The position numbers were made by a program, and so were the translations under genes. This document shows, piece after piece, positions 2,608 to 37,391 of a DNA stretch of 40,294 nt (the stretch's first letter is position 1; every line of letters starts with the position of its first letter). This DNA comes from Hadesarchaea archaeon (GTDB lineage: Archaea; Hadarchaeota; Hadarchaeia; Hadarchaeales; Hadarchaeaceae), in contig JAUWBN010000010.1 in assembly GCA_030601675.1 (NCBI GenBank), positions 1 through 40,294 of the forward strand, written 5' to 3'. The notes under the pieces were generated by a model. It was not told the origin of the DNA and ran no database searches. It saw only the letters and a list, made by a program, of their open reading frames with translations.

Positions 2608-2913
2608 CTATTCCCAGATGCCTTTTTTCCTCAGCCACGCGACTTGCGTTCTGGTGTAGCGGTAGATGACGTCTCCCTTCTTCTCAGTTTGTACCACCCA
2701 GGGACGGACGATCACCACGTCGTTCTCCCGAACCCAGAGCCGCTTGCGAATCTTGCCCCGGATGCGACATGTGCGCACGTACCCATCCTTACACCTGACG
2801 CGCAGGCGATCAAAGCCAAACATCTGCTCGGCGACACCTAAAACTTCGTCCGTGCGAGGCATCCGAATTCGCTCGATCTCTTCACTTGGTGTCAGCTTCT
2901 TGCGCTTGGGCAT
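2608..2913 (-). CDS. eif1A: Translation initiation factor aIF1A
   Basis: Archaeal counterpart of eIF1A/IF1, which binds the ribosomal A site during initiation. The 101-residue protein has the basic N-terminal tail (MPKRKKLTPSEEIERIRMPR), an OB-fold core with the family pattern LRVRCKDGYVRTCRIRGKIRK, and WVRENDVVIVRPWVVQ. Its ATG overlaps the stop codon of the upstream citramalate-synthase-like gene by one base (TGATG), so the two are probably translationally coupled. Confidence 0.95.
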   Translation of the reverse strand: MPKRKKLTPSEEIERIRMPRTDEVLGVAEQMFGFDRLRVRCKDGYVRTCRIRGKIRKRLWVRENDVVIVRPWVVQTEKKGDVIYRYTRTQVAWLRKKGIWE

Positions 2914-4412
2914 CAGGCACCCCCGAGTTTACGATCCCAGAGCAATCGGTTTACCCCATTCAACATCGCTTGGACGCTCGCCATGATGATGTCCCCATTC
3001 GTGCCCCGGGCTGTTACTATGCGCCGTCCGTCCGTTAGCTTGACTACGACATCTACAACCGCATCGCTCCCCCCCGAGATCGCGTCGACGTGGTATTCCT
3101 GCAGGCGGATATTCGACATACCTTCAACGACCTTGCGGATAGCGTTCATCGCCGCGTCCACCGGTCCGACACCCAATCCCGATTCCACCACTTCTTTCTC
3201 GCCGAACTTAACCCGAACGGAGGAAGTAGGGGTAACACGGTTGCCGCTGACCACAGTGAGCTCTTCCAACTTGACAATCTCCTTCAGTTCGCGTCCCATT
3301 ACCGCATCGACGATCGCGCGCAGCTCTGTATCGGTGACCAGCTTGCCCCGATCACCCAATTGCTTGACCTGTCCGAAGATCTCTTGGACCTGTCCCTTCG
3401 TGGGCTTTAGGCCCATTCGCTTGAGTTCGTTCTCAATGGCATGAGAGCCGACGTGCTTTCCGAAGACAAGTTTTCGGTGATGCCCCACCACTTCAGGTGA
3501 AATAGGCTCGTAGGTTGGTGGATAGACGAGCACCCCGTGGGTGTGGATGCCCGCTTCGTGTGCGAAGGCGTTTTCACCGACCACGGCTTTCGTCGGCGAT
3601 ACCGGCAGCCCCGTCTGGCGCTCCACGAGCTTCGAGATGTCGTAAAGTTTGTTCAGCTTGACCCCAGTTTTGATTCCGTGAAAGTGCGTGAGCGCGAGCA
3701 CAACCTCTTCGAGCGCGGCATTCCCCCCACGCTCGCCCAAGCCGTTGACGCTCACGTGGACCTCTTGGGCCCCAGCTTGGACCGCAGCGAGCGTGTTCGC
3801 CGTCGCCATGCCGAAATCGTCGTGGCAGTGGGCAGCAACGGGCACTTTTACGGCCTTCGTGAGTTCGGAGAAAAGTTCACTTGCCTTCTCAGGGGTGAGC
3901 ACCCCAACGGTATCGCAGACGCAAATGCGCTGCACACCCTCCTTGACGGCCGCTGAGAGGAACTCGCGAAGGAAGGTGGGATCGGTGCGGGTAGCGTCCT
4001 CGGCGGAGAACTCCACCACCAGCCCGTGGTCGAGGGCATAGCGCGCGGCGTCGAGAGAAACCCGCTTTATCTCCTGTCTGCTTTTCTTCAGTTTGTGCTT
4101 TAGGTGAATGTCAGATGTGGGGACGACGAGGTGCACGCTGTCGACATCACATGCAAGCGCAGCATCCACATCGCTTCGAAGGGCCCGGACGAAGCTACAT
4201 ATCTCCGCGTCCAAACCTGCTTTTGAGATTTGCTTTATCGCCTTGCGTTCACCCTCAGAGGTTATCGCTGCCCCTGCTTCGATGATATCAACGCCGAGGT
4301 CATCAAGAGCTCTAGCTACTTCGAGCTTTTGTTCGGGGGCCAAAGCTACACCGGGCGTTTGCTCCCCGTCACGCAGGGTCGTATCGAGCACTTTTACGGC
4401 GCGCTTTTTCAT
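2913..4412 (-). CDS. 2-isopropylmalate synthase/citramalate synthase family, probable (R)-citramalate synthase
   Basis: Acyl-CoA-dependent aldol condensing enzyme of the LeuA/CimA/homocitrate synthase family. The TIM-barrel start VLDTTLRDGEQTPGV carries the metal ligand D10, and AHCHDDFG supplies H195 and H197. NGLGERGGN and the GENAFAHEAGIHTHG motif are present, and a full C-terminal regulatory domain (about 380-499) contains [12 protein letters not shown] and YHVDAISGGSDA. The substrate-side motif reads CDTVGVLTP, where the paralogue across the promoter reads PDTVGVITP. From memory the former resembles archaeal citramalate synthases (pyruvate plus acetyl-CoA, isoleucine route) and the latter LeuA. 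That assignment is inference; the family is certain. It is transcribed with aIF1A and the genes beyond. Confidence 0.85.
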   Translation of the reverse strand: MKKRAVKVLDTTLRDGEQTPGVALAPEQKLEVARALDDLGVDIIEAGAAITSEGERKAIKQISKAGLDAEICSFVRALRSDVDAALACDVDSVHLVVPTSDIHLKHKLKKSRQEIKRVSLDAARYALDHGLVVEFSAEDATRTDPTFLREFLSAAVKEGVQRICVCDTVGVLTPEKASELFSELTKAVKVPVAAHCHDDFGMATANTLAAVQAGAQEVHVSVNGLGERGGNAALEEVVLALTHFHGIKTGVKLNKLYDISKLVERQTGLPVSPTKAVVGENAFAHEAGIHTHGVLVYPPTYEPISPEVVGHHRKLVFGKHVGSHAIENELKRMGLKPTKGQVQEIFGQVKQLGDRGKLVTDTELRAIVDAVMGRELKEIVKLEELTVVSGNRVTPTSSVRVKFGEKEVVESGLGVGPVDAAMNAIRKVVEGMSNIRLQEYHVDAISGGSDAVVDVVVKLTDGRRIVTARGTNGDIIMASVQAMLNGVNRLLWDRKLGGA

Positions 4413-4482: not shown

Positions 4483-6033
4483 ATGCGGAGAGAGGCTTTC
4501 GTAAGCGATTTCATCAAGCGGGTGAGCAAGGGGGTAAAGCTCCCGAGGCGTGTCAGGGTATTTGATACCACCCTCCGGGATGGCGACCAGACTCCAGGGG
4601 TATCATTTACCGTTGACCAGAAGCTGCTTATCGCGCGGCAGCTCGACAGGCTGGGGGTGGACACGATTGAAGCCGGCACACCGGTATCGTCCGAGGGTGA
4701 AAGGAAGGCTGTGACCGCGATAGCGAAAGCCGGCCTGAACGCGGAGATCTGTGGGCTAGCAAGGCCGGTCAAAGAAGATGTGGACGCGGCACTTGAGTGT
4801 GGGGTGGATTGTGTTCACGTATTCATCAGCACATCTGACTTGCACCTAAAACACATGCTCAAGATGACGCGCGAACAAGTGCTCCGACAAGCGGTCGAGC
4901 ACGTCGAGCACGCCAAGGACCACGGCGTCACCGTCGAGTTTTCTGCCATGGATGCCACGCGGACCGACTTGGGATATCTCAAAAAAATCTATCAAGCGAC
5001 CGTGCAGGCAGGGGCGGACCGCATCAACGTTCCAGATACTGTAGGCGTGATCACCCCGCGGGGCATGAATTACCTAATCAGCCAGCTGAAACCCGTCATA
5101 AAAGTGCCGATAAGCGTGCACTGTCACGATGACCTCGGGCTAGCGACGGCAAACTCGCTCGCTGCGGTCGAGGCTGGAGCCGAACAGGTCCATGTAGCGG
5201 TCAATGGGCTCGGTGAACGTGCGGGCAACGCATCCTTGGAGGAGGTCGTCATGGCTCTTCGGGCGCTTTACGGGGCAAAACTGAAGGTTCGAACCAAGTT
5301 GCTCGCTGAGACCTCCGACCTGGTTGAGCGTCTGACTGGGATACCGGTGCCGCCGAACAAGGCGATCGTGGGGGAGAACGCATTCGCCCATGTTTCGGGC
5401 ATCCACGCTCACGGTGTGCTTGAGTTCCCGGGCACTTATGAGCCTATCTCGCCAGAGCTGGTCGGGCACCATCGCCGTCTGTCATTGGGCAAGCTCACGG
5501 GAAGGCACTCGGTCGAAAAGCAGCTCAGGAGTATCGGGGTGAAGGCGAACAGGGCGCAACTGGCGGAGATCACGGAGCGAGTCAAAAACCTCGGGGACAA
5601 GGGCAAGCGCGTGACCGATGTCGATCTTCGGGCGATAGCCGAGAGCGTGATCGGGGCGCTCCCCAAAGAAGAAAAAGTTGTCGAGCTTAAGGAGGTCACC
5701 GTGACTACTGGGATCACGATAACACCAACGGCTTCCGTGCGGCTTGAGATTCGAGGCGAGGAGCGCATCGGTTCTGCAACAGGAGTTGGCCCCGTCGATG
5801 CCGCGATAAGCGCGATCCGAAACGTCATGAAAGAGATCTCGGCGCTCAGGCTCAAGGAGTACCACCTCGATGCCATCACCGGGGGAAGCGATGCCTTGGC
5901 CGAGGTCACGGTGAAGCTAGAGGACGAGAAGGGCAACCTCTACATCGCGAAGGGCGTGCGGGAGGATGTTGTCATAGCTAGTGTAGACGCGATGATCAAC
6001 GGGATAAATCGATATTTTGCAGGTAGGAAATAG
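4483..6033 (+). CDS. leuA: Probable 2-isopropylmalate synthase (LeuA)
   Basis: Catalyses condensation of 2-oxoisovalerate with acetyl-CoA in leucine synthesis. The 516-residue protein has an extra basic N-terminus of about 20 residues before the barrel. Motifs: [15 protein letters not shown] (metal ligand D28), [40 protein letters not shown] (two metal-binding histidines), [14 protein letters not shown] and [15 protein letters not shown]. It also has a C-terminal allosteric domain with [13 protein letters not shown] and [12 protein letters not shown]. The start is the ATG at 4483 after GAGGGAACGG; an in-frame GTG 13 codons in is a weaker alternative. It is paralogous and divergent to the gene at 2913-4412. 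Leucine versus citramalate (or homocitrate) specificity cannot be fixed from sequence reading alone. Confidence 0.85.
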
Positions 6034-17506: not shown

Positions 17507-17625
17507 TCAACCACCTCATCGAACTGTTGAGATTACTCCTTTATTTATTTAAGCTTAACCCCTCCAAACGGTCAAATTAGATAATCTTTTATCGATTTTA
17601 AAGCTTAGTGTATAATGGTGTCCTC
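17507..17625. promoter_or_regulatory. Divergent promoter region, thermosome and pilus ATPase
   Basis: On the minus strand, CTTAAATAAATAAAG (about 17542-17556) is a strong TATA-like element about 40 nt upstream of the thermosome ATG. On the plus strand, TTTTATCG and TTTTAAAGC (about 17587-17603) are candidate boxes for the secretion ATPase gene, whose ATG at 17626 follows GGTGTCCTC. No clear heat-shock operator palindrome was found by eye. Confidence 0.45.
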
Positions 17626-19329
17626 ATGCCTAAGAAGAAAAAGGCTACTCGGCGGGGCAAAAAACTTGGAAAGCCTAGGAAGCCCCCGGCCTTGGGGTTT
17701 GAGCCCTTAGCGGATAAAGGAGAAGGATTCCTCTCGGAGCTTTTAGCGGAGGCACCGCGAAGAGCGTCCGAAGCCGTTGTAAAAAAACCGGTGCTCGAGC
17801 CCATGTTGCCCCCAGCGGTTGCCAAGGAGATAAAAGCCCCTGAAGCCGGAAAGGTGCTGGAGAGATATGGTCAAGTCGAGATCCTATCGGTGGAGGGCGA
17901 AGTTCTACCATTTTACAAGTTGAAAATGCCCGAGCTGACGAGTCGGGAACAAAAACTCCTCGATGCTGCGAAAGAAAAAGCTGTAGAGGAGATAAAAATA
18001 GATCCGGACAGGATTCCGGACCCGACCGAGCGTCAACACACTTTCATGCGCGAAGTCCTGAAGATAATCGAGCGTGAGAGCAAGGGCACACACCTCCCGC
18101 CCGGGCGCATAAAGCAGCTCGGCGAGGTGGCGGTGCGGGACATGCTGGGGTACGGCCCGCTCGACCCCATGATAGCCGACGACAAGCTCGAGGACATCAT
18201 GGTGACGGCCGTGGGCAAACCCGTTTACGTCTATCATCGAAAGTATGGGATGTGCTCTACAAACGTGGTTTTTGAAAACGAGGATTCGATCAAGTACCTC
18301 ATAGATAAGATGGCCCGCATTGTGGGCAGGCGAATAGACCAACAGACGCCCCTGCTCGATGCGCGGTTGCCCGATGGAAGCAGGGTAAATGCCACCATCC
18401 CGCCGGTCTCCCTCGAGGGACCGACGATCTCGATACGGAAGTTCCGCAAGGACCCGCTCACGATGATCGATATCTTGAACTTTGGCACCCTCTCGACGGA
18501 TGTCGCAGCTTTCATATGGTTGATCGTGGATGGTTTCGGCATCAAGCCCGCCAACATTCTCTTCGCGGGGGGAACAGGCTGCGGGAAGACCACCACCCTT
18601 AACGCCGCCACCACCTTCATTCCCGAGCGGGAGCGCCTCATCTCGATCGAGGACACAGCCGAACTCCAGCTGCCGCACAAGCACTGGATCAGACTCGAGA
18701 CCCGCCCCCCCAACGTTGAGGGACGGGGGGAGATTGTCATGGACGACCTCGTCAAGAACGCGCTCCGGATGAGGCCCGACCGGATGATTGTGGGGGAGGT
18801 CAGAGGTCCAGAGGCGCGGACGATGTTTACCGCGATGAATACTGGGCACGATGGCTGCATGGGCACCGTACACTCAAATAGTGCAGCCGAAACGGTCACC
18901 CGCTTGACCGAGTCCCCGATGGACGTGCCCGAGATAATGATCCCGGCGCTCGACGTGATCGTGATGCAGCAGCGCATGTATCATCGTCAGAAGGGACAGA
19001 TTCGAAGGATCACCGAGGTCGCCGAGGTGACGGGTCTGGAGGGGGGTAAGCCGCAGCTCAGCCGTATTTTCAAGTGGAACCCACGCACGGACGTGGTCGA
19101 GCCGACTGGGGTACCGAGCAGGATCAAGCGCATAATAGCGGAGTTCAGCGGGGTAAGCGGCAACGACATCGAGATCGAACTCGAGAAGCGCGCGACGGTG
19201 GTCGAGTGGATGAAACGCCAGGGCATTCGAAACATCTTCGAGGTGGGCAGGGTCATCCAAGAATATTACCGAGATCCAGAGGGGATGCTGAAACGCGTAC
19301 GGGCCGAGAAGGGTGCGAAGCGTCGTTAG
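17626..19329 (+). CDS. Type IV pilus assembly ATPase (GspE/TadA/PilB family)
   Basis: Cytoplasmic hexameric motor that powers pilin assembly. A basic N-terminal tail (MPKKKKATRRGKK) and a linker of about 100 residues precede the N-domain. Walker A GGTGCGKTT is at 315-323, the Asp box around IEDTAELQL, Walker B RPDRMIVGEVRG at 383-394 and the His box TGHDGCMGTVHSNSA at 406-420. 567 residues from the chosen ATG. A GTG six codons earlier (17608) sits close to or before the expected transcription start, so the ATG with GGTG is preferred. Two platform proteins follow at once and pilins and a prepilin peptidase lie downstream, so this is a pilus rather than an archaellum or DNA-transfer ATPase; no archaellum genes are seen. 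Confidence 0.93.
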   Translation: MPKKKKATRRGKKLGKPRKPPALGFEPLADKGEGFLSELLAEAPRRASEAVVKKPVLEPMLPPAVAKEIKAPEAGKVLERYGQVEILSVEGEVLPFYKLKMPELTSREQKLLDAAKEKAVEEIKIDPDRIPDPTERQHTFMREVLKIIERESKGTHLPPGRIKQLGEVAVRDMLGYGPLDPMIADDKLEDIMVTAVGKPVYVYHRKYGMCSTNVVFENEDSIKYLIDKMARIVGRRIDQQTPLLDARLPDGSRVNATIPPVSLEGPTISIRKFRKDPLTMIDILNFGTLSTDVAAFIWLIVDGFGIKPANILFAGGTGCGKTTTLNAATTFIPERERLISIEDTAELQLPHKHWIRLETRPPNVEGRGEIVMDDLVKNALRMRPDRMIVGEVRGPEARTMFTAMNTGHDGCMGTVHSNSAAETVTRLTESPMDVPEIMIPALDVIVMQQRMYHRQKGQIRRITEVAEVTGLEGGKPQLSRIFKWNPRTDVVEPTGVPSRIKRIIAEFSGVSGNDIEIELEKRATVVEWMKRQGIRNIFEVGRVIQEYYRDPEGMLKRVRAEKGAKRR

Positions 19330-19336
19330 TGGTTCC

Positions 19337-20455
19337 ATGCCGAAGAAAAAAGCTAGAAAGTCGGATCTAGCAAAAAGATTTTTCTACACGGTCGGCAGTG
19401 CCGTGGTAAAAATCGGCGGGGGGACAGCAAAGGCAACACAGCGTTTGAGTCGGACCGTCAAAGTTACAAAGGGTCCAAGACCCCCGGAGAAGGCCGATGA
19501 GGTCACGCGAAGGCTACACGATCTAAAGCGGCTTGAAACGCTGCGCGAGGAAGAGCTCAAAGCCGAGCGCAAGCTGAAAGAGGAGAAAACTTGGGAGGAG
19601 CGCATGGAGCTAAAGAGGCCGTTGTCCGAGCGCCTCTCCGATATCTTCTATTCTCCTCTCAAGCGCCCGGCGCAGCGATTGGCTAAATTCTTCAAGGGGC
19701 TAGATGAGGACCTCTACAAGGCCAACCTCAGGATTGCTCCAGAGCGTTACGTGGCGCTCATGATCGGGATGAGCCTCATCGTGGGGATCTCGGCGTTCAT
19801 CCCGATGCTCCTCTTCTTACCCATCCCAATCGCCTTGGTGGGCGGGATGTTCGCTTTTTTGCTCGCGTTGGCGTTCGGCAGGACCCAGCCGAGGCGCAGG
19901 GCTAGCGCGCGCGTAGTCGGGGTGAATCGCGTGATCCCATATGCTCTCAGACACATGGCGACGCAGCTTTCCTCGGGCATAGGTCTCCCCGAGACGATGA
20001 CCTCGGTCAGCCAGGCGGATTACGGTGCCCTTTCGGAGGAGTTCGGCAGGGTCATCCGTGACATGCACACGGGCATGAGCACGGAGGAGGCGCTGGCGAC
20101 AATGGACCGAAGGGTGGATTCAGAGCCGCTCCGCCGTGCGGTTCGTCAGATTCAGCGTACCCTACGGACTGGCGGCGATCTCGCAAATATCCTCAACGTG
20201 TTGGCAGACGAAACGGCTTTCGAGATGCGCATGAAACTCCGTGACTACACCCAGTCGCTCAACATGCTTACGATGATCTACATGTTCGCCTCCGCGGTCA
20301 TCCCAGCCATGCTTCTGGTCACGATAACGGTGGGGAGCAGGATGGGTGGGGCAATGTTGACCCCGGCAAGTGCGGCTGTTCTCTTTCTGATCCTCATACC
20401 GTTCATGTTGTTCTACTTCGTGATGACGATCAAACGCTTCGAGCCGAGGTTGTGA
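19337..20455 (+). CDS. Pilus assembly platform membrane protein 1 (TadB/TadC/GspF-like)
   Basis: Polytopic inner platform protein that couples the ATPase to pilin insertion. It has a basic N-terminus (MPKKKARKSD, echoing the ATPase start), a highly charged helical stretch at about 50-95 that could form a coiled coil, two adjacent membrane segments near 135-180, a cytoplasmic T2SSF domain (LRHMATQLSSGIGLPETM; LRTGGDLANILNVLADE), and two membrane segments near 305-360. The ATG at 19337 is used; a GTG at 19313 overlapping the ATPase gene would add eight residues. Confidence 0.88.
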   Translation: MPKKKARKSDLAKRFFYTVGSAVVKIGGGTAKATQRLSRTVKVTKGPRPPEKADEVTRRLHDLKRLETLREEELKAERKLKEEKTWEERMELKRPLSERLSDIFYSPLKRPAQRLAKFFKGLDEDLYKANLRIAPERYVALMIGMSLIVGISAFIPMLLFLPIPIALVGGMFAFLLALAFGRTQPRRRASARVVGVNRVIPYALRHMATQLSSGIGLPETMTSVSQADYGALSEEFGRVIRDMHTGMSTEEALATMDRRVDSEPLRRAVRQIQRTLRTGGDLANILNVLADETAFEMRMKLRDYTQSLNMLTMIYMFASAVIPAMLLVTITVGSRMGGAMLTPASAAVLFLILIPFMLFYFVMTIKRFEPRL

Positions 20456-22618: not shown

Positions 22619-22810
22619 GTGGAAGTGGAAGAACGTTCGCAAGGTGCAACTGAATACTTACTAATGCTCGGCGCAGTGCTGATGCTCGTGGCTGGCATAG
22701 TCGCTTCTATCATCCTCACATCTCATACCTTGGGCTCAAACGTCAGCGGCCAGATCGATGATGTGATGGATAACGTCATCATCCCCTGCCTAGTCGGAAC
22801 GCTTTTGTAA
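22619..22810 (+). CDS. Small class III signal peptide pilin, 63 residues
   Basis: MEVEERS, then QGATEYLLMLGAVLMLVAGI, the same motif as the upstream pilin, followed by a very short head (SGQIDDVMDNVIIPCLVGTLL). The mature chain is little more than the N-terminal helix, as in the short pilins of some archaea. Its leader is acidic (EVEER) rather than basic, which is odd for a prepilin. The start is a GTG at 22619 or the next in-frame GTG at 22625; both follow G-rich sequence. Confidence 0.8.
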   Translation: MEVEERSQGATEYLLMLGAVLMLVAGIVASIILTSHTLGSNVSGQIDDVMDNVIIPCLVGTLL

Positions 22811-22856: not shown

Positions 22857-23624
22857 GGTGGTCGCGCGTCCGAGTTCGAGCTCCTCCTCCCAGCTGCAAT
22901 AGCTCTCGCAGCGGTCTGCATTGCCAACTACACAGATCTACGGAAGCGAATCATCCCCAACCGGCTCACATTTCCGCTCATCGTGGTCGGCGTCGCCTTT
23001 TACGTGCTCCTCGGCGTTTGGCGCTGGGACCTCTGGACGATGATATCCGGGGCGCTCGGGGCGGCGATAGCCTTCATCATCGGCTACGCGATGTGGTTAA
23101 CGGGTGGGTGGGCTGGAGGCGATGTGAAACTCTTCACGGCACTGGGGGCCCTGCTGCCATTTTATACCGCACCCTATGTTCTGAACGTGCCCTATCCATT
23201 CCCCATCACGATTTTATTTAACTCGGTCATCGCCATCCTGCCGATCCTGCTCATCTACGCCGTGATCTGCCGTGTTCGCGGGCGAGCCGTGCTTTACGAG
23301 CAGGTCAAAATTACCGAACTCAGGGAGGGCATGATCCCCGCTGAAACCATCTACGAGAAAGACGGCAGGGTCGAGCGGTGGAGTTCAAAATTTGGGCTGA
23401 AGCCGCGTTACGATCGTCTCTACACCAATCCCAGGCGGGCGGCGGGCCTCACGCGCTACCAGGTGGGGGCGCTCAAGCGCCTCGTTCGCGAGCGCAAGCT
23501 GAAAAACTACATGAAACTCAAGAAGGGCATACCATTCGCCCCCGCGCTCGGCCTAGGTGTCTTCATCGCGGTCTTCTACGGCGATCTGTATTGGGGCCTC
23601 ATCAAAGCGCTCGCAGGCGTGTAA
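22857..23624 (+). CDS. Prepilin peptidase (A24 family, EppA/PibD-like); start unresolved
   Basis: Membrane aspartic protease that trims prepilin leaders. The first catalytic Asp lies in NYTDLRKRIIPNRLTFP and the second in GGWAGGDVKLF (GxGD motif). At least six membrane segments; a C-terminal cytoplasmic insert (about 130-215) and a final membrane helix match archaeal EppA. The first ATG/GTG/TTG in this frame is the GTG at 22983, which would cut off the first helix and the first catalytic Asp. The frame is open from 22857 but has no standard start, although a TATA-like TTATTAAT (22832-22839) and GGGTGG (22856-22861) are in place. A GTG at 22858 in another frame is well placed, so a one-base frameshift (real or sequencing error) or a non-standard start is likely. 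The coordinates give the open frame. Confidence 0.85.
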   Translation, partial: GGRASEFELLLPAAIALAAVCIANYTDLRKRIIPNRLTFPLIVVGVAFYVLLGVWRWDLWTMISGALGAAIAFIIGYAMWLTGGWAGGDVKLFTALGALLPFYTAPYVLNVPYPFPITILFNSVIAILPILLIYAVICRVRGRAVLYEQVKITELREGMIPAETIYEKDGRVERWSSKFGLKPRYDRLYTNPRRAAGLTRYQVGALKRLVRERKLKNYMKLKKGIPFAPALGLGVFIAVFYGDLYWGLIKALAGV

Positions 23625-23663: not shown

Positions 23664-24425
23664 TTATCTAACCCTTTCCAAAATCGCCTTAACCTTGGCC
23701 CCCCGCAACCCGAGCATCGGCCGCTCGACGCTGATCTTCGCGAGGTCTCCTTTTCCGACTTTGGCGAAGCTCTCGACCAAGTACAGGCCTGACTTCACGT
23801 TGCTGCAGATGTCATAGCTGACTCGAACCACCGCCCGGCGCCCCCGGACCTCCTCGACCCTGCCGTATGTGAAGCTTCGGCCGTACTTGAGCCTGAAGGC
23901 CGCGAATGCCACGAACACGGACCCTATCGCTATCAACGGGGGGATGAGTGCCAGGTGGAGTGCCTCGATCGAGAACTCGATTGGGGAGTGTCGGAGCGCG
24001 AGCACGAAGACCCAGGCGATGGCCACGCACATGCCCACGAAGCTCCGGTAGGCAGGGTAGTCCCGCTCGAATGCGCGCCTGAGCTGCCCCACCGCAAGGT
24101 AGATCAGGTAGGCGCTCAGCGCGAGCAGCAGGGGAATGAAGATGACGACTTCCGCGGGCAGCAACGCTATGTAGACCACCGCTGTCACGAAGAGGGCGAG
24201 GATCGCCAGCTGCGCCTTGAGCATGATGTATTCGGGCCACCCTGCATGGCGCCGCTCGAAGAAACCCTGTAGCGCGCGGGGGATTTCGGGCTTGGGTTTC
24301 GGCGGGGCTTTTTTCTTTACCTTCGGCGCCCTCCGTTTGAGCTTGCTCGGGATCTTCCCCACACCGAGGACTGCGTCACCAACCTTGCGGAAGAAATCGG
24401 TCACCTTGGAACCTTTTCTTGCCAT
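23664..24425 (-). CDS. Membrane protein of the pilin operon, possibly DUF2101 family
   Basis: 253 residues. A basic N-terminus rich in Lys/Pro (KLKRRAPKVKKKAPPKPKPE) precedes two close membrane segments (about 68-90 and 92-115), two more (about 128-148 and 155-178), and a C-terminal beta-rich cytoplasmic domain (VEEVRGRRAVVRVSYDI; KVGKGDLAKISVERPMLGLR). The architecture reminds me of the archaeal DUF2101 family, which I cannot confirm. The ATG follows GGTGGAAAA and lies about 30 nt after the last pilin-like gene, so it is the distal gene of that operon. A role as an accessory pilus membrane protein is inferred from position. Confidence 0.75.
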   Translation of the reverse strand: MARKGSKVTDFFRKVGDAVLGVGKIPSKLKRRAPKVKKKAPPKPKPEIPRALQGFFERRHAGWPEYIMLKAQLAILALFVTAVVYIALLPAEVVIFIPLLLALSAYLIYLAVGQLRRAFERDYPAYRSFVGMCVAIAWVFVLALRHSPIEFSIEALHLALIPPLIAIGSVFVAFAAFRLKYGRSFTYGRVEEVRGRRAVVRVSYDICSNVKSGLYLVESFAKVGKGDLAKISVERPMLGLRGAKVKAILERVR

Positions 24426-24456
24426 TTTTCCACCAAAAACATTGACCTCTTCTGCC

Positions 24457-25146
24457 TCACCCTAGCTCCACTGTCGACAAGTACTGCGCGGCACCTCGCG
24501 GGTCTCTGACGTTAATAAACACTCTAAGTTGTACTACCCCTTCCACCTCTGTGTTCTCCCCGACATGGGTCGGAGGAGGGCCACCGACTCCTTCCCAAAG
24601 TGGTGGGGGGTCTGAATAATAAACATCCGAGCCATTCGAGTCCAAGTCGCCACCGTATTCTTCGATAGTTATTCGCAGATTTTCACCGAGTTTTTCGACA
24701 AGCAGGATAGGTTCATCGTAGTCCCCATCCTCTGCGTCTTCGAAGTAATAGCGCCAGTTTTCCGGAGCGACGTGGTCAACCTTGCAGTAGGTGGCCCCCG
24801 CATAACGATTGTCCCCAGTATCTACATGGATCCACAGCATCCACGTGGGCGTGATATCCACCAGCAACCCCGTAGCTGCGCGATAATTGTCGGCAAGATC
24901 AGCAAACTTAGCGTTGGTATTAGGTTCGTTATCGGTCAATAGATCGTCATCCCACATTTTTTTAATCATGCGCTCGATATCATTCCCAGTATAAAACACC
25001 TTGTCAGCGGTGGTCTGCAGCGCGACCGCTTCTCCACCCATCTCGATTATTGCAAAGCAAGAGGTCGCAAGCAGCATAGCTGGAAGCACAAGCAGCAGCG
25101 CAACCCCGCTCAGCACGAATCCGCGTTGGTCCCGCCCCAGTTTCAT
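24457..25146 (-). CDS. Pilin-like protein, 229 residues
   Basis: The leader MKLGRDQRG is followed by FVLSGVALLLVLPAMLLATS, a pilin-like hydrophobic helix without the Asp/Glu at +5. The remaining 190 residues are acidic and predicted extracellular (WMLWIHVDTGDNRYAGATY; GDLDSNGSDVYYSDPPPLWE), ending in a beta-like segment (VVQLRVFINVRDPRG). I know no family for the head. The ATG at 25146 overlaps the preceding stop (ATGA), showing coupling. It could be a minor pilin or a tip subunit. Confidence 0.75.
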   Translation of the reverse strand: MKLGRDQRGFVLSGVALLLVLPAMLLATSCFAIIEMGGEAVALQTTADKVFYTGNDIERMIKKMWDDDLLTDNEPNTNAKFADLADNYRAATGLLVDITPTWMLWIHVDTGDNRYAGATYCKVDHVAPENWRYYFEDAEDGDYDEPILLVEKLGENLRITIEEYGGDLDSNGSDVYYSDPPPLWEGVGGPPPTHVGENTEVEGVVQLRVFINVRDPRGAAQYLSTVELG

Positions 25147-26102
25147 GTTCCCGCCCCCCGCCACACGTAGAGGGTGATGGAATCAAATATGTTCTCAGGT
25201 GGGACGCCCACATACGTCCTGAAGTAAAAGTCGTGGCGGCCGCCGCCGCCCTCCGACCAGCTCCCGCCGCTCTTGGTGATGAGCCAGACTTTCCCCCACG
25301 GATATATATCGCCATCACTTGGCCTGTACTCGGCCCACCAGTACGTGCCGCCGCCCTCCAGCTCGGGCAGGACGATGGAGTAATGGTCGCCAGCAGTTAC
25401 CTCTGCGGGCGAGGGGAAGGTAAACTCGTATTCCTCGCCGGTGGTGGAAGCGACGTCACTTGTGGTCGTGCTGGCCAGAACCGTGCTCCCCGGTTTGTTG
25501 TCCGCCGTGCAGTCCCTGACTTCAATAGTTAGCTCCCCCGGGCTCCCTTCCACCTTCAAATACAGGACAACCTTGGTGAGGTCTCCGGTGAGGCCGGCGA
25601 CAAAGCTCTGCGCGCACCACTTCCCGTTCTCGACCTCGTGCCACTTACCCTCCGTGCGGTTGGGGTTGTCTTGGTCGAGCCCACCCAACGCCACAACACG
25701 GGCTGCAACGGCGATTTCCTCGGCGCTTGCGAACGCGTTGCCCCAGTTTTTTCGTTCTCCCGCATCACTCGGGTAAACCACCAAGCGATTGTCACCAACC
25801 ACGAGCTTGAACTGCACTTCGTCCGGTAGGATTTTCTTGAGCTCCGCCCGCGCCAGAATTTCGGCTCCAGTGCTGTCTCCCACCATAACCAGATCCACGA
25901 CGTCATCTAACGTGCCCGTGAGCCGCATCACCTCGAGCGCATCATTTGCGTATCGCTCCAAGCGCAGGTAGCCGTGTTGCCCGTAGGTCAGCTCAGGTCC
26001 AGCCACGCGCGCCACCCCAGCCATCACGATTAGCACGACGAGCATCGCGAGCGTAGCGTCGAGGCTGAAGATGAATCCCCCTCGATCCCTTCGAAAACTC
26101 AT
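25143..26102 (-). CDS. Large pilin-like protein with C-terminal beta-sandwich domain
   Basis: 319 residues. MSFRRDRGGF then IFSLDATLAMLVVLIVMAGV, a pilin helix with Asp at the usual Glu position. The first 110 residues of the head form a pilin-like stalk (YANDALEVMRLTG). From about 150 there is a separate domain (WCAQSFVAGLTGDLTKVVLY; PGELTIEVRDCTADNKPGST; YWWAEYRPSD). Its QSF...L..V.LYL...G.PG.L pattern is that of extracellular beta-sandwich modules found in surface and phage proteins. Two or more cysteines may form a disulfide. The likely role is an adhesive or tip pilin (inferred). GGAGGT ribosome site before the ATG. Confidence 0.8.
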   Translation of the reverse strand: MSFRRDRGGFIFSLDATLAMLVVLIVMAGVARVAGPELTYGQHGYLRLERYANDALEVMRLTGTLDDVVDLVMVGDSTGAEILARAELKKILPDEVQFKLVVGDNRLVVYPSDAGERKNWGNAFASAEEIAVAARVVALGGLDQDNPNRTEGKWHEVENGKWCAQSFVAGLTGDLTKVVLYLKVEGSPGELTIEVRDCTADNKPGSTVLASTTTSDVASTTGEEYEFTFPSPAEVTAGDHYSIVLPELEGGGTYWWAEYRPSDGDIYPWGKVWLITKSGGSWSEGGGGRHDFYFRTYVGVPPENIFDSITLYVWRGAGT

Positions 26103-26106
26103 GGGC

Positions 26107-27099
26107 CTACCTCCATAGTTTCACCTCAAGCGTCGCGGGCAATGTTTCTAGCATGAGGGGCGCACTTTCCCAATCTGAGCACGCGGGGACCATGACCACG
26201 TAAATACGGACCCATTCACTCTTCTCCGGGCTGGCCTTAATCCAGGCACCTAGAAAGTTTGGGCCTTCCGTGAGTTGGTTGTCGATTCCAGAATCGTTCT
26301 CTATTCCCCCGTGTTGTTCTGGAAAGGTCTCCTGGAGGATTCTAGGGTCACTGGGGAAGGAGTAGTCGGGGTTTTGGTAAGGTGACTCTGCGTCTTTATT
26401 TACCCAGATTTTAGCCCTTGGATTATTGCCTCCACCCATCACGACGATGTAGAAGTCAAACGCATCAAGCTCTCCCGGATAAATCTCAAACTCCAAATGC
26501 ACATCTCTCTCCCAAGGTGACCATTCACCTACTAGCCGTTCAGAATCTACTCTAATGGCAGTTCCATATCTCATGGCGACTGAACGCCTGACGACCGCGA
26601 CCTCAAAGGAGTTCTCAGCCCCCGACTTCTCTCCAACATCTCCGGTGACCCACCCCGGAAAAGCGTGCCACAACTCATCCCCGTTCTCATCAAGTATTCT
26701 AATTTCAAAATTCTCGGACCCGCCAAAGAGCTTCTTTATTGCTTCTACCGCGTTGGCATTTACCGGAGCCACCCAATTATCGCTATTAGTTAGACGCCTG
26801 AGCTGCCCAAACTTTCTGATGCTCAAAGTATTTTGGACGGGGTTTCCCTCACTCTCCTCCGTAAATCCCGGGGTTTCTAGCATTTCGGCATTTTCCCCCC
26901 AGTTTGAAGGTCTGCCCAAGGTCTTCACGAGCACGTCCGCGGCATCGTTCGCCGTGCGCTCGAGCGAGTAACGGAGCGCATAGCTTTCGGCTTGCCTGCG
27001 CGCCCCTTCGAGCGCCAGCCCCGAGTAGCTCACCACGAGCACCGTCAGGGTCAGCGCGAAGAACATGTCGAGTGTGAAGACTTGGCCTCGCTCGTTCAC
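26107..27099 (-). CDS. Large pilin-like protein, 330 residues
   Basis: The leader MNERGQ is followed by VFTLDMFFALTLTVLVVSYS, with the FTLD motif that places Asp where pilins carry Glu+5. The long head has an acidic, beta-rich region (FEIRILDENGDELWHAF; LEFEIYPGELDAFDFYIVVM) and a C-terminal segment (WVRIYVVMVPACSDWE; LEVKLWR). The start is the GTG at 27099, which follows GAGGGTGAC and overlaps the upstream TGA as GTGA. The open frame continues 77 codons further up, but that part is antisense to nothing useful and overlaps the upstream gene in another frame, so it is left out. Confidence 0.8.
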   Translation of the reverse strand: MNERGQVFTLDMFFALTLTVLVVSYSGLALEGARRQAESYALRYSLERTANDAADVLVKTLGRPSNWGENAEMLETPGFTEESEGNPVQNTLSIRKFGQLRRLTNSDNWVAPVNANAVEAIKKLFGGSENFEIRILDENGDELWHAFPGWVTGDVGEKSGAENSFEVAVVRRSVAMRYGTAIRVDSERLVGEWSPWERDVHLEFEIYPGELDAFDFYIVVMGGGNNPRAKIWVNKDAESPYQNPDYSFPSDPRILQETFPEQHGGIENDSGIDNQLTEGPNFLGAWIKASPEKSEWVRIYVVMVPACSDWESAPLMLETLPATLEVKLWR

Positions 27100-27497
27100 T
27101 TCGTCACCCTCCTTATCTCCACGTTCACGTCGTAGGTGTAGTATCCCGTCTTGACAGGTTCCGCATTCTCGGGGAAGAAACCAACCACCGCTTGGTAGAT
27201 GTACTTGAGCGCGCTCGCCCTGATGTTGTCCCGTATCGTTTGGTCGTCCGGCGGGGGTCCACCCCTGACGTTCACGTAAATTGTTATGGTGCCGGCGTCT
27301 ACGCCGACCTCCTCGATAATGATTTCGCACCCGTATTCGGCGTCGATGTCGGCGATCGCGTTCTCGGCCCCAGCGCGCGCAGCCGACTTGACGGTTTCCA
27401 TTTCGTTGCCCCCAGCACCCAGATAGAGGAGCGACGCCACCGCCACTAGGATCGCCCCAACGAGGATCATCATCTCTGCGCTGGATTGGCCCCTCAT
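27096..27497 (-). CDS. Class III signal peptide pilin, 133 residues
   Basis: MRG then QSSAEMMILVGAILVAVASL: the canonical Q.S.E class III motif with the glutamate kept. The head has helix-like ETVKSAARAGAENAIADIDA and beta segments (CEIIIEEVGVDAGTITIYVN), ending in YDVNVEIRRVTK. The ATG at 27497 overlaps the preceding TGA (ATGA). An in-frame start 11 codons earlier would lie inside the previous gene and would give an unusually long leader. Confidence 0.82.
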   Translation of the reverse strand: MRGQSSAEMMILVGAILVAVASLLYLGAGGNEMETVKSAARAGAENAIADIDAEYGCEIIIEEVGVDAGTITIYVNVRGGPPPDDQTIRDNIRASALKYIYQAVVGFFPENAEPVKTGYYTYDVNVEIRRVTK

Positions 27498-27919
27498 GCG
27501 TTCACGACCATCACGGTGTTTTCCACCCAATACACCCGAATAGTATTTTCCAAATTTTCCCGTTCCAGCACGAAGTTCTCGACGTTTTTGCAGACGACTC
27601 CAGCACCAACAGTTCCCCAGGCTGAATTTTCCACGAGGACCTGCCGCGCGGTATTGTCGAATTTGATCCGGTAAAAGTAGCTTCCTATTTTTGGGAGGAG
27701 GTCGACGTCGAGTTCGAAGCCCGGACCGTTCGCGTAGACGATGTTTATCGCCGCCGCGAGCTTCTCACCGACGATTTGGGCTTCCAACCTAGCACCCATC
27801 AGCTCGGCCGCCCCCTTCCGCGCATCGTAAACATGCAAAAATGACGTTGAAACCATGATAAGGAGCGTTACCGCGAACAACGCATCGATCGAGAAAAACC
27901 CCCGCTCGCGAAGTCCCAT
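27494..27919 (-). CDS. Pilin-like protein with FSID motif, 141 residues
   Basis: MGLRERG then FFSIDALFAVTLLIMVSTSF: a pilin helix with Asp at +5 in place of Glu. The conserved segment AINIVYANGPGFELDVDL is shared in part with the two pilins upstream (VYANGPG, VYAAGVG). The head is beta-rich with one cysteine. GAGGACTG precedes the ATG, which lies 2 nt after the preceding stop. Confidence 0.8.
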   Translation of the reverse strand: MGLRERGFFSIDALFAVTLLIMVSTSFLHVYDARKGAAELMGARLEAQIVGEKLAAAINIVYANGPGFELDVDLLPKIGSYFYRIKFDNTARQVLVENSAWGTVGAGVVCKNVENFVLERENLENTIRVYWVENTVMVVNA

Positions 27920-27921
27920 GG

Positions 27922-28386
27922 TCAGTCCTCCACCTCGATCTCCTCCGGCGGCTGGATGCGGATGTAAATATTATAGTTGGCCCTGACGATATTTTCTTGG
28001 TCACCCGGCCATTCCACGATTACCGTGTAGGTGCCGGTCGAAAGGTTTTGTAGATTACAGTTGAACCCGTACCTGAGGTTGCTCTCGACATTTTGGGTCC
28101 CGCTCGAAAGCTCGAGGCTTATCGTGAGCTTGTTCTCGGTGAGCTGCAGACTCCAGCTTTGGTCGATGGGAAAGCCCACGCTCTTCGTCGCCCCTGGGCC
28201 ATTCGCGTACACGGACTCCATCGCCCCGGCAATCGCATCGGCGGCGGACCTAGCTTGGGAAAGGTACAGCGCGTCCCTTCCGGCCTCCTGCGCGGGGTTT
28301 ATCATCTGCCCGAACGTGACCGCAGCGAAGATTACAAGCATTGTCGAAAAAATAAGCAGATATTCGACGGCCGATTGTCCCCGCAT
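27922..28386 (-). CDS. Class III signal peptide pilin, 154 residues
   Basis: MRG then QSAVEYLLIFSTMLVIFAAV, the canonical motif. The stalk contains AIAGAMESVYANGPGATKSV with the VYANGPG element, and the head is beta-rich (KLTISLELSSGTQNVESNLR; TYTVIVEWPGDQENIVRANY). The ATG at 28386 follows GGTGG and overlaps the region of the preceding stop (TGAGATG). An ATG seven codons earlier would lie inside the upstream gene. Confidence 0.83.
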   Translation of the reverse strand: MRGQSAVEYLLIFSTMLVIFAAVTFGQMINPAQEAGRDALYLSQARSAADAIAGAMESVYANGPGATKSVGFPIDQSWSLQLTENKLTISLELSSGTQNVESNLRYGFNCNLQNLSTGTYTVIVEWPGDQENIVRANYNIYIRIQPPEEIEVED

Positions 28387-28387
28387 C

Positions 28388-28849
28388 TCAAGCCACCTTG
28401 ATTTCAATGTACCTCAGATTACCGCTGAACTCGTATGTAAAGGTCATCCGATGGAGACCAGAGCCAACATCGAAGTTTTCGTTATCAACAATTACGCGAT
28501 TTTCATCGTTCCTGCTCGGCAGAATCGTGCTAACTTGCACCGCGTTATCGCTTTCTAGGTCCAATTCTATCTTAACATCCACACGATTTTCAGCTCCATC
28601 GACAAAGGAGACCGAAACGACACCTTCGGGGAGCCAGTACTCTGCCGTCTGCCGAGAGCCGACCCCCGCCGCGTAAACCATGTTGATGGCGTTTGTCAAT
28701 GTGTTTGCGGCCTCGCGCGCATCCGCAAGCTTTGAGACCCTCTCGGCGTCGGCACGCGCTTGGCTGTACATGGGCATCGTGATGGCGGCGATGATGATGA
28801 GCAAGCCCGATACGACGACGATGAACTCGATGCTAAGCTGGCCTCTCAA
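28388..28849 (-). CDS. Class III signal peptide pilin, first gene of the minus-strand pilin operon
   Basis: MRG then QLSIEFIVVVSGLLIIIAAI, with the class III motif. The stalk has TNAINMVYAAGVGSRQT, a variant of the shared VYANGPG element, and the head is beta-rich (VVSVSFVDGAENRVDVKIEL; FTYEFSGNLRYIEIKV). The start is a TTG at 28849 after AGGGGGT. It is the promoter-proximal gene of a series of eight tightly packed genes ending at 23664. Confidence 0.82.
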   Translation of the reverse strand: MRGQLSIEFIVVVSGLLIIIAAITMPMYSQARADAERVSKLADAREAANTLTNAINMVYAAGVGSRQTAEYWLPEGVVSVSFVDGAENRVDVKIELDLESDNAVQVSTILPSRNDENRVIVDNENFDVGSGLHRMTFTYEFSGNLRYIEIKVA

Positions 28850-28895: not shown

Positions 28896-30173
28896 CTAAA
28901 CCGCGTAGCTGATGTCCGCTCCCAGCCCTTGGAACGTGGAGATGAAGCGGGAGCACGAGGTTCTGAGCGCCGTGGCCCCGTTTTTTACTTTTGTTTCACC
29001 TTCGGCAAGCAGCCCCGCCACGATTAAGGCTGTGACAACTGCGTAGTCCTCGTGCCCGTCGACCTCGCACCCCTTGAGCTTGGCTGGCCCTTGGATGAGC
29101 AATCCGTCGTGGCGTTCGAGCACTTTCGCTCCCATCCGGCGCAGTTCTCGGGCCGTGGCTGAAACACGATCTGATTTCATGGTCCTCGCCTCACCGGCGT
29201 TCCCGATCAGCGTTTTGCCCTTGGCCCTACATGCGAGCACAGAGATCATCGGCAAAAGTTCAGGCACCCGGGAAAGGTCCAGTTTGGCGGCGCGGGGATT
29301 CTGTTTGCCCTCCGCGACGAAACTTTTTTTGGACACCCGCACCCTGAGGCCGGCCATTTTCAGGACATCTAAAAATGCAACGTCTCGACCGGCCACACCT
29401 TTCACTCCGCGAAGTTTGAGTTTAGAATTCGTCAGGGTCGCGGCAATGATAAAGGGCGCCGCTGCCGCGAGCTCCTGTGGCACCCTAAAATTGAACGCAC
29501 GGTAGGGCTGGTTCGGTATCAGGAGCTTCTTCCCCCTTGAGCTCACCTCCACACCGGCCCTCTTTGTAAGTTCGAGAATTGCCCTAAGCTGGGGATCCCC
29601 CTGTTTTCGTTTGAAAGAGAGTTCAACCCGCTTTCCCGCATATGGGCATGGGAGAAGGATGGCAGGCAGGCAATGCGCACTTACCTCGCCGAGCCGCACC
29701 TTCCCACCCACGAGTCCCCCGCCGAAAATGACGAAGGGTGGGCTGTCATCCGGTTTCGTCGAATGGACATCTGCGCCAAGGCGGTGAAGGGATCTCAGCA
29801 GCACGGGCATCGGGCGGGAGCGCAGCTGGGTGTCGCCATTGAGCACTGTTAGCGTGGACGCCAAAGCCGCAATCGATGTGAGCAAGCTTAGCGCGGTCCC
29901 CGAGTTTCTCGCGTCGATGACATTTTGGGTGGGTTTGGGGCTACCGCCAGCTCCCCAGATGGACCAACGGTCTTGGGTTCGCTTTACTGTGACACCCAAC
30001 GTCTCGGCGGCTTGGAGCATCACGTTTGTATCCTTTACACGGAGTGGATTCTCGATCACGCTCTTGCCCCCCGCGAGCAGTGCCAACGCGCTTGCGAATT
30101 GGGTGTGCAGTTTCGACGCTTGCGGCTCGAGCTCCCCGGAGAGCCCCGCTGCGGGTCGAACTATCAGGTCCAC
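28896..30173 (-). CDS. EPSP-synthase-family protein lacking key catalytic residues
   Basis: The fold is that of 3-phosphoshikimate 1-carboxyvinyltransferase: two inside-out alpha/beta domains, 425 residues, with SGTALSLLTSIAAL, LRSRPMPVLLRSLHRLGADV and DLSRVPELLPMISVLA. Of the residues that bind shikimate-3-phosphate and PEP in E. coli AroA, K21, R120, D299 and R336 (SDR) appear kept. The following are changed: Ser to L22 (SKL), Arg to Q25, Arg to S96, Lys-Glu to M332-K333 (TMKSDR), Arg of DHR to D376 (GHEDYA), and Lys of KSYP to T405. This is unlikely to be an ordinary EPSPS; it may be a neofunctional paralogue. The GTG start at 30173 overlaps the ThiI-like gene by 10 nt. Confidence 0.85.
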   Translation of the reverse strand: MDLIVRPAAGLSGELEPQASKLHTQFASALALLAGGKSVIENPLRVKDTNVMLQAAETLGVTVKRTQDRWSIWGAGGSPKPTQNVIDARNSGTALSLLTSIAALASTLTVLNGDTQLRSRPMPVLLRSLHRLGADVHSTKPDDSPPFVIFGGGLVGGKVRLGEVSAHCLPAILLPCPYAGKRVELSFKRKQGDPQLRAILELTKRAGVEVSSRGKKLLIPNQPYRAFNFRVPQELAAAAPFIIAATLTNSKLKLRGVKGVAGRDVAFLDVLKMAGLRVRVSKKSFVAEGKQNPRAAKLDLSRVPELLPMISVLACRAKGKTLIGNAGEARTMKSDRVSATARELRRMGAKVLERHDGLLIQGPAKLKGCEVDGHEDYAVVTALIVAGLLAEGETKVKNGATALRTSCSRFISTFQGLGADISYAV

Positions 30174-37303: not shown

Positions 37304-37391
37304 GGGCCTGTAGCTCAGTGGTAGAGCGTCGGCTTTGCAAGCATTTAGCCAAAAAAGCCGAAGGTCCCGGGTTCGAGTCCCGGCAGGTCCA
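37304..37391 (+). tRNA. tRNA-Ala (anticodon UGC) with a 16 nt intron
   Basis: The acceptor stem GGGCCTG/CAGGTCC includes the G3-U70 pair that marks alanine tRNA; discriminator A; no encoded CCA. D-arm GCTC..GAGC; anticodon stem TCGGC/GCCGA (37329-37333, 37357-37361); T-arm CCGGGTTCGAGTCCCGG. The anticodon loop holds TTTGCA, then 16 extra bases (37340-37355) at the canonical 37/38 site. They fold as bulge-helix-bulge: TTTG (37334-37337) pairs with CAAA (37350-37353), with 3 nt bulges CAA (37338-37340) and AAA (37354-37356), and an inner GC/GC stem closes the ATTTA loop. It sits in the usual archaeal position between 16S and 23S. Confidence 0.97.

What the first reader, a model, noticed from the sequence alone, without database searches (positions are those of the whole stretch)
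23664..28849. Pilin operon with two classes of N-terminal motif
Three of the seven pilin-like proteins have the class III motif Q..(S/A).E (28388, 27922, 27096 genes). Three others have F(S/T)(L/I)D, with Asp where pilins keep Glu+5 (27494, 26107, 25143 genes). One has no acidic residue there (24457). Glu+5 normally pairs with the N-terminus of the neighbouring subunit, so the mix suggests a defined order of subunits, with the Asp class perhaps as minor pilins or tip proteins. Gene sizes increase in the distal part of the operon.
Basis: partly seen in the sequence, partly recalled or inferred. Interest (0 to 1): 0.5.

Follow-up and report, generated by a model that had tools for sequence, protein, structure and literature searches.

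The report
Archaeal pilus tip-subunit operon
A subsurface archaeon carries a conserved row of seven pilin-like genes whose start motifs fall into two spacing classes, with one subunit lacking the usual acidic residue, which suggests but does not prove that part of the set builds the sticky tip of a type IV pilus.

Summary
The seven pilin-like genes are real: a tight operon in a Hadarchaeota genome, followed by a DUF2101 gene. Converging on it are a T4P ATPase, two TadC proteins, two further pilins and the only A24 peptidase found in the genome. Other Hadarchaeota have the same operon, and Thermococcales have it without gene 2. It resembles the 'Clade 1' T4P loci of Makarova 2016.

Counted from the Gly/Ala processing site, genes 1, 2 and 4 have Glu+5. 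Gene 3 has Asp+5 and is a paralogue of gene 1. Genes 5 and 6, paralogues of each other, have Asp at +6, not +5. Gene 7 has no acid at +1 to +12, and Pro at +13. In 211 unique sequences there was one departure (a Glu in gene 3). Loci from other lineages agree for genes 5-7, with one Glu+6.

Genes 6 and 7 carry exchangeable modules (choice-of-anchor R, LamG; DUF2341 in Thermococcales). Best explanation: genes 5-7 form a pilus-tip complex capped by gene 7, like bacterial HIJK or PilABC. Processing, order and tip position are inferred. Against it: many archaeal pilins lack an acid at +5, and a published model places these pilins at the base.

The parts
28388..28849 (-). P1, pilin-like, 153 aa, G|QLSIEF, Glu+5
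   Evidence: below the PF04021 cut-off
27922..28386 (-). P2, pilin-like, 154 aa, G|QSAVEY, Glu+5; not found in the Thermococcales operons
   Evidence: below the PF04021 cut-off
27494..27919 (-). P3, pilin-like, 141 aa, G|FFSIDA, Asp+5; paralogue of P1
   Evidence: no Pfam match
27096..27497 (-). P4, pilin-like, 133 aa, G|QSSAEM, Glu+5
   Evidence: below the PF04021 cut-off
26107..27099 (-). P5, large pilin-like, 330 aa from the GTG at 27099, G|QVFTLD, Asp+6; paralogue of P6
   Evidence: no Pfam match
25143..26102 (-). P6, large pilin-like, 319 aa, G|FIFSLD, Asp+6; choice-of-anchor R domain at residues 149-287
24457..25146 (-). P7, pilin-like, 229 aa, G|FVLSG, no acid at +1 to +12, Pro+13; proposed tip cap or initiator
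   Evidence: no Pfam match
23664..24425 (-). P8, membrane protein DUF2101, last gene of the operon
   Evidence: PF09874, 108.3 bits against a cut-off of 22
17608..19329 (+). T4P assembly ATPase (T2SSE)
   Evidence: PF00437; 57% identical to a Thermococcales ATPase
19313..20455 (+). TadC-like platform protein 1 (T2SSF)
   Evidence: PF00482
20452..21393 (+). TadC-like platform protein 2 (T2SSF)
   Evidence: PF00482
21390..22025 (-). HTH protein between machinery and pilins
   Evidence: PF08279
22073..22462 (+). Class III pilin, 129 aa, G|QGATEY, Glu+5; likely major pilin (inferred)
   Evidence: PF04021 over its cut-off
22619..22810 (+). Small class III-like pilin, 63 aa, QGATEY
   Evidence: below the PF04021 cut-off
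22857..23624 (+). Prepilin peptidase (A24 plus Arc_PepC domain), start unclear; only A24 match in the genome

Best explanation
The operon encodes the minor-pilin set of a Clade 1-like archaeal type IV pilus. P1-P4 (acid at +5) share the register of the likely major pilin. P5-P7 have a mature N-terminus one residue longer: Asp+6 in P5 and P6, no acid in P7. Proposed mechanism: after cleavage by the single A24 peptidase, P7 assembles first. Having no acid, it cannot neutralise the N-terminus of a subunit above it, so nothing is added above it. P6 and P5 dock beneath it through Asp+6, P1-P4 join this complex to the Glu+5 shaft, and the ATPase and TadC proteins push the whole out. The exchangeable modules of P6 and P7 would then sit at the tip and bind a surface, a glycan or possibly DNA. 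Shown by sequence: operon, registers, missing acid, paralogy, modularity, machinery. Inferred: processing, docking order, tip position, ligand.
For: Acid pattern in 211 unique sequences: P1, P2, P4 Glu+5 in 81 of 81; P3 Asp+5 in 29 of 30; P5 and P6 Asp+6 in 65 of 65; P7 none in 35 of 35, with Pro+13 in 35 of 35. In 20 stretches of other lineages not used to build the models: P5 Asp+6 in 18 of 19, P6 13 of 13, P7 without acid and with Pro+13 in 7 of 7. Leader: Gly or Ala at -1 in 211 of 211, charged residue at -2 in 199 of 211. P6 and P7 carry exchangeable modules: choice-of-anchor R in the window, LamG in both P6 and P7 of L063, DUF2341 in 3 of 3 Thermococcales P7 scanned, and none in 7 of 15 Hadarchaeota P6. 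[quoted passage not shown] PilABC with grafted adhesive modules (PMC9934059, passages). DUF2341 proteins of Clade 1 loci were already proposed as tip adhesins (PMC4858521, section 9).
Against: [quoted passage not shown] PMC4858521 places the minor pilins near the base. EppA of M. maripaludis is reported to need Gln+1, which P3, P6 and P7 lack. The P7 and P5 models found no convincing pilin or GspK relative, which is inconclusive. In 8 of the 20 other-lineage stretches with P5 that are not evidently cut there (L136, L137, L140, L141, L143, L145, L146, L147) no P7 was recognised.
Confidence: 0.58

Rival explanations
1. Base model: the unusual pilins stay in the membrane or at the filament base, uncleaved or as part of the assembly machine. 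The acid at +6, or its absence, then reflects a membrane rather than a filament environment.
For: PMC4858521 section 9 draws the minor pilins of Clade 1 near the base, by analogy with the archaellum. P3, P6 and P7 have Phe+1 in the window, whereas EppA is reported to need Gln+1 (PMC4371748, passage). DUF2101, a membrane protein, is encoded with them.
Against: Gly or Ala at -1 is kept in all 211 sequences and a charged -2 residue in 199 of 211, as expected of processed prepilins. Exchangeable lectin-like modules make more sense when exposed. The peptidase here matches neither FlaK nor EppA above cut-off, so the Gln+1 rule may not apply.
Confidence: 0.22
2. No ordering code: P5-P7 are ordinary minor pilins scattered along the filament, and the register shift and missing acid are inherited quirks without effect on order.
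For: Many archaeal pilins lack an acid at +5 (PMC4371748, passage). The Asp/Glu choice in P3 varies between lineages.
Against: The +6 Asp and the acid-less P7 with Pro+13 hardly vary over very diverged sequences, and each keeps its place in the Hadarchaeota and Thermococcales operons.
Confidence: 0.15
3. The complex is a DNA-capture tip for natural transformation rather than an adhesin. This concerns the ligand and is compatible with the tip model, so its probability is not to be added to the others.
For: In M. maripaludis, insertions in epd pilin genes, eppA, a DUF2341 gene, an OB-fold gene and a TctA-family gene were found in a screen for transformation defects (PMC10133366, passages). A TctA gene lies near DUF2101 and pilins in L054 and near the ATPase in L169. 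TctA matches occur in 29 of 41 genomes searched.
Against: The window's genome (86% complete) has only a partial TctA match below cut-off, 24.6 bits. The recognised modules are adhesion or carbohydrate types.
Confidence: 0.3

Closest known systems
Clade 1 archaeal type IV pili of methanococci, methanobacteria and Thermococci (Makarova, Koonin, Albers 2016, PMC4858521; abstract, sections 9 and 15 and passages seen)
   Same: Closest ATPases, two TadC proteins, at least five minor pilins in the locus, the same operon order in Thermococcales
   Different: In Hadarchaeota: an extra pilin (P2), no DUF2341 found in window P5-P7, a single A24 peptidase below the EppA cut-off, and LamG or choice-of-anchor R modules; the present reading puts P5-P7 at the tip, the paper puts minor pilins at the base
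Bacterial minor-pilin tip complexes HIJK (T2SS, T4aP) and PilABC of Streptococcus sanguinis (PMC10191384, PMC9934059; passages seen)
   Same: Minor pilins in one operon, one subunit without Glu5, grafted adhesive modules on others (PilB, PilC)
   Different: No sequence or structural homology shown here; acids at +6 rather than +5 in two subunits; in PilABC the modules are on subunits with Glu5, here also on the acid-less one
Methanococcus maripaludis epd/eppA locus (PMC10133366, PMC4371748; passages seen)
   Same: Multi-pilin locus with a DUF2341 gene, needed for piliation and transformation
   Different: Gene-by-gene correspondence to P1-P7 was not tested here

Membership tests
Clade 1 archaeal T4P | Assembly ATPase of clade 1, not the archaellum ATPase | tested here: met
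   57% identical to a Thermococcales ATPase that is next to two TadC-like genes, 32% to the ATPase in that genome's archaellum-like locus (neighbours named by reading). By best match only; no tree with named clade references was built
Clade 1 archaeal T4P | Two TadC-like proteins | tested here: met
   two PF00482 proteins, 73.2 and 76.9 bits
Clade 1 archaeal T4P | At least five minor pilins in the locus | tested here: met
   seven pilin-like genes plus two class III pilins
Clade 1 archaeal T4P | Dedicated 9-TM peptidase EppA (often present) | tested here: not met
   EppA model 46.1 bits against 450, FlaK model 56.6 against 330; 255-aa frame. An Arc_PepC domain is present, so it may be an intermediate form. 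The feature is described as frequent, not obligatory
Clade 1 archaeal T4P | Large DUF2341 proteins in the locus | tested here: not met
   no DUF2341 match in window P5-P7; present in 3 of 3 Thermococcales P7 scanned
Clade 1 archaeal T4P | FleN/MinD-type regulatory ATPase | not tested
   not searched
HIJK-type tip complex | Several minor pilins encoded in one operon | tested here: met
   conserved order
HIJK-type tip complex | One subunit lacks the acid at +5 | tested here: met
   P7: no acid at +1 to +12 in 35 of 35 and 7 of 7 more
HIJK-type tip complex | Structural homology of the subunits to GspH, I, J, K | tested here: inconclusive
   AlphaFold2 models of P7 and P5 found no convincing match
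HIJK-type tip complex | Located at the pilus tip and needed to start assembly | not testable with these tools
   needs labelling or cryo-tomography and mutants
Class III signal peptide prepilins | Charged -2, Gly/Ala/Ser -1, then a hydrophobic helix | tested here: met
   -1 Gly or Ala 211 of 211; charged -2 199 of 211; the window's P6 has Gly at -2
Class III signal peptide prepilins | PF04021 match over the curated cut-off | tested here: not met
   P1, P2, P4 match below cut-off (19.8, 13.5, 18.5 against 23.7); P3, P5, P6, P7 no match; only the 22073 pilin is over it (35.6)

The most novel reading that the evidence does not exclude
P5-P7 are an ancient tip-initiation complex spread over several archaeal lineages: three subunits with a shared +6 register, the last of which has lost the acid and carries Pro+13, found as an ordered gene triad in Hadarchaeota, Thermococcales and further lineages. 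The register shift would be a code that fixes the order of subunits at the tip, and the heads of P6 and P7 are slots in which adhesive modules are exchanged.
Probability: 0.42. Interest if true: 0.75.

Novelty: new member of a known kind. Interest (0 to 1): 0.5.

Why it matters
Where archaeal minor pilins sit and how an archaeal pilus is started is unsettled in the papers seen (base in PMC4858521; cap or membrane for AapA in PMC11178815, passages). A conserved acid-less subunit beside two Asp+6 subunits gives a specific, testable candidate for the initiator and tip, in organisms whose relatives (Thermococcus, Methanococcus) can be manipulated genetically. The modular heads of P6 and P7 also give a sequence handle on what these pili bind.

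Tried and rejected
Rejected: a single Asp class. P3 is a P1 paralogue and aligns with P6 only over 23 hydrophobic columns, with a one-residue offset. Rejected: unrelated membrane proteins (shared leader, operon, register and two homologous pairs). Rejected: Asp as an invariant of P3; outside Hadarchaeota and Thermococcales 3 of 5 P3-class hits have Asp and 2 have Glu, and one more Glu is the single departure (L074).

Led nowhere: Foldseek for P7 gave viral spike proteins at E 0.044 or worse, and VIA-align 2 gave no Z of 5 or more; no pilin is among the rows shown, which does not exclude one. Foldseek for P5 gave weak jelly-roll and carbohydrate-module matches (best E 5.3e-4 with TM-score 0.15) from a model of pLDDT 71. 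The likely major pilin has no convincing solved relative by sequence (best E 0.24). DUF2101 is in no paper of the library. A search for Hadesarchaea and pili listed nine papers, none recognised from title or abstract start as treating their pili. Searches for archaeal tip complexes, modular archaeal pilins, Asp5 and DUF2341 listed no paper that, from title and abstract start, describes +5 and +6 registers; most of these papers were not opened, so this is weak evidence of absence.

Weak points of the counts: the training sets were chosen by motifs that include the acid, and only afterwards masked at +5/+6. L032-L049 and L059-L073 partly come from the same genomes; identical sequences were counted once, near-identical ones were not. 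The sequences are related, so counts are not independent events. Twenty hits whose N-terminus could not be mapped were dropped. The 20 other-lineage stretches were fetched for their P5 matches, found with an unmasked profile, so the P5 count there is conditioned on the motif; the P6 and P7 counts are not. In one search one L141 hit with Asp+5, sorted under P1, may be a P3; one P3 hit (L144) has Glu at the extrapolated -1 place; and a P7-like gene of L138 visible was not recognised by the model and is not counted. The listings did not ask for an acid and show the same pattern by eye.

Left out: similar motifs in haloarchaeal DUF7284-7288 proteins are recalled and were not tested.
Full report
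What is there. The window is a contig of a 0.94 Mb archaeal genome, 86% complete. The nearest named records with the same operon, up to 91% identical in the DUF2101 protein, are Hadesarchaea/Hadarchaeum MAGs. On the minus strand, from 28849 to 24457, seven pilin-like genes (P1-P7) follow each other with gaps of +1, +2, -4, -4, +4 and -4 bases; a DUF2101 gene (P8) follows after 31 bases. Converging on it, on the plus strand, are the T4P ATPase, two TadC-like proteins, a class III pilin, a small class III-like pilin and an A24 peptidase. The peptidase is the only A24 match in the genome.

Conservation. DUF2101 was found in 27 of 61 genomes, and I fetched stretches around the 27 matches outside the window. 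Of 18 Hadarchaeota stretches including the window, 12 hold motifs for all seven genes in order. Of the remaining six, five are cut inside the operon and one has a variant P1 motif. Of 17 Thermococcales-type named loci, 10 hold P1, P3, P4, P5, P6, P7 in that order before DUF2101; P2 was not sought by motif there and does not appear in the listing. An unmasked P5 profile finds matches in 80 of 297 genomes.

Register. With +1 as the residue after the Gly or Ala, class models masked at +5 and +6 assigned ORFs of the fetched stretches. In 211 unique sequences P1, P2 and P4 have Glu+5 in 81 of 81; P3 has Asp+5 in 29 and Glu+5 in 1 of 30; P5 and P6 have Asp+6 in 65 of 65; P7 has no acid at +1 to +12 in 35 of 35. 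P5-P7 have Ser, Thr or Asn at +4, while P1-P4 have Ser, Thr or Ala, rarely Gly or Val, at +3. That is what one expects if P5-P7 have one more residue before the same small motif. P7 has Pro+13 in 35 of 35. In 20 stretches from other lineages that were not used to build the models, P5 has Asp+6 in 18 of 19 and Glu+6 in one, P6 has Asp+6 in 13 of 13, and P7 has no acid and Pro+13 in 7 of 7; P3 is Asp+5 in 3 and Glu+5 in 2 of 5. The limits of these counts are listed under Tried and rejected.

Descent. Profile comparison links P5 and P6 over 126 columns (94.8%, E 5.2e-8) and P3 and P1 over 78 columns (97.0%, E 7.9e-11). P7 and P6 are not linked beyond a 26-residue N-terminal match of 3% probability.

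Modules. P6 keeps an N-terminal frame and a last conserved segment. Between them 7 of 15 Hadarchaeota proteins have no insert, the window a choice-of-anchor R domain (two near relatives align along it), L063 a LamG domain, and four others (L066, L067, L070, L073) a longer insert without a Pfam match. P7 has a LamG domain in L063 and is reduced to 113-123 aa in three of 15. In Thermococcales P7 is 362-1199 aa long and has DUF2341 in the three proteins scanned; the two Thermococcales P6 proteins scanned had no Pfam match.

Structure. AlphaFold2 gives P7 a 56-residue N-terminal helix, a second helix and a beta-rich head (pLDDT 86), and P5 a long helix with a mixed, mostly beta head (pLDDT 71). 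Neither found a convincing solved relative. Long helix plus beta head fits a pilin-like shape but does not prove it.

What it most likely does. In bacteria the minor-pilin complex at the tip is capped by a subunit lacking Glu5 (PMC10191384, passages), and PilB and PilC of S. sanguinis carry grafted modules beside the Glu5-less PilA (PMC9934059, passages). The anatomy here is alike: one acid-less subunit, the last pilin of the Hadarchaeota and Thermococcales operons where both P7 and DUF2101 are seen, beside subunits with exchangeable modules; in the window its gene overlaps that of P6 by 4 bases. DUF2341 proteins of Clade 1 loci were already proposed as tip adhesins (PMC4858521, section 9 read in full). 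Here the three Thermococcales P7 proteins scanned carry that domain, so two lines of argument meet on one gene. I therefore favour a tip complex of P7, P6 and P5 (0.58). [quoted passage not shown] the same 2016 paper places minor pilins at the base.

Membership. The ATPase is 57% identical to a Thermococcales ATPase next to two TadC-like genes and 32% to the ATPase of that genome's archaellum-like locus. This is by best match, without a tree. I call the system Clade 1-like: EppA and DUF2341, which often go with that clade, are not met in the window.

Function. In M. maripaludis a transposon screen for transformation defects hit epd pilin genes, eppA and a DUF2341 gene (PMC10133366, passages), so DNA uptake is possible. 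TctA, the candidate DNA transporter there, is matched in 29 of 41 genomes searched but only partially and below cut-off in this one.

Novelty. The kind of locus is known; its occurrence in Hadarchaeota, the two-register rule and the acid-less P7 as a candidate cap were not seen in the papers opened or listed, most of which I saw only as listings.

Noticed in passing
22857-22983: The prepilin peptidase frame has no ATG, GTG or TTG ahead of its first conserved Asp motif; the first usual start (GTG 22983) would cut that motif off. Either an unusual start codon or a frame error.
   Followed up: partly
28896-30173: A gene that looks like EPSP synthase (aroA, named by reading) ends 46 bases upstream of P1 on the same strand and a similar gene stands upstream in several relatives (L034, L039, L046, L048), so the operon may be co-transcribed with it.
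   Followed up: no
37304-37391: Rfam finds an 88-base tRNA between the 16S and 23S rRNA genes that ARAGORN did not report; perhaps it holds an intron.
   Followed up: no
L054, L169 (also L055, L056, L170 by reading): TctA-family genes, candidate DNA transporter of M. maripaludis, stand near DUF2101 and pilins or near the T4P ATPase in other lineages, which hints at a link between these pili and DNA uptake.
   Followed up: partly
window 24460-25146 and 27497-27919 compared with 26110-27099: P3, P6 and P7 have Phe+1 while P1, P2, P4 and P5 have Gln+1, yet the genome shows one A24 peptidase; in M. maripaludis Gln+1 is reported as a requirement of EppA. In Thermococcales P3 has Gln+1 but P6 keeps Phe+1 and P7 Phe or Tyr.
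   Followed up: partly
2913-4412 and 4483-6033: Two divergently oriented paralogues that look like isopropylmalate or citramalate synthases (named by reading).
   Followed up: no
23664-24425: DUF2101 has a conserved C-terminal soluble-looking segment (KYGRNFTYG...YDI.SNVK.G) in all lineages aligned and no paper in the library names it; its role beside the pilins is open.
   Followed up: no
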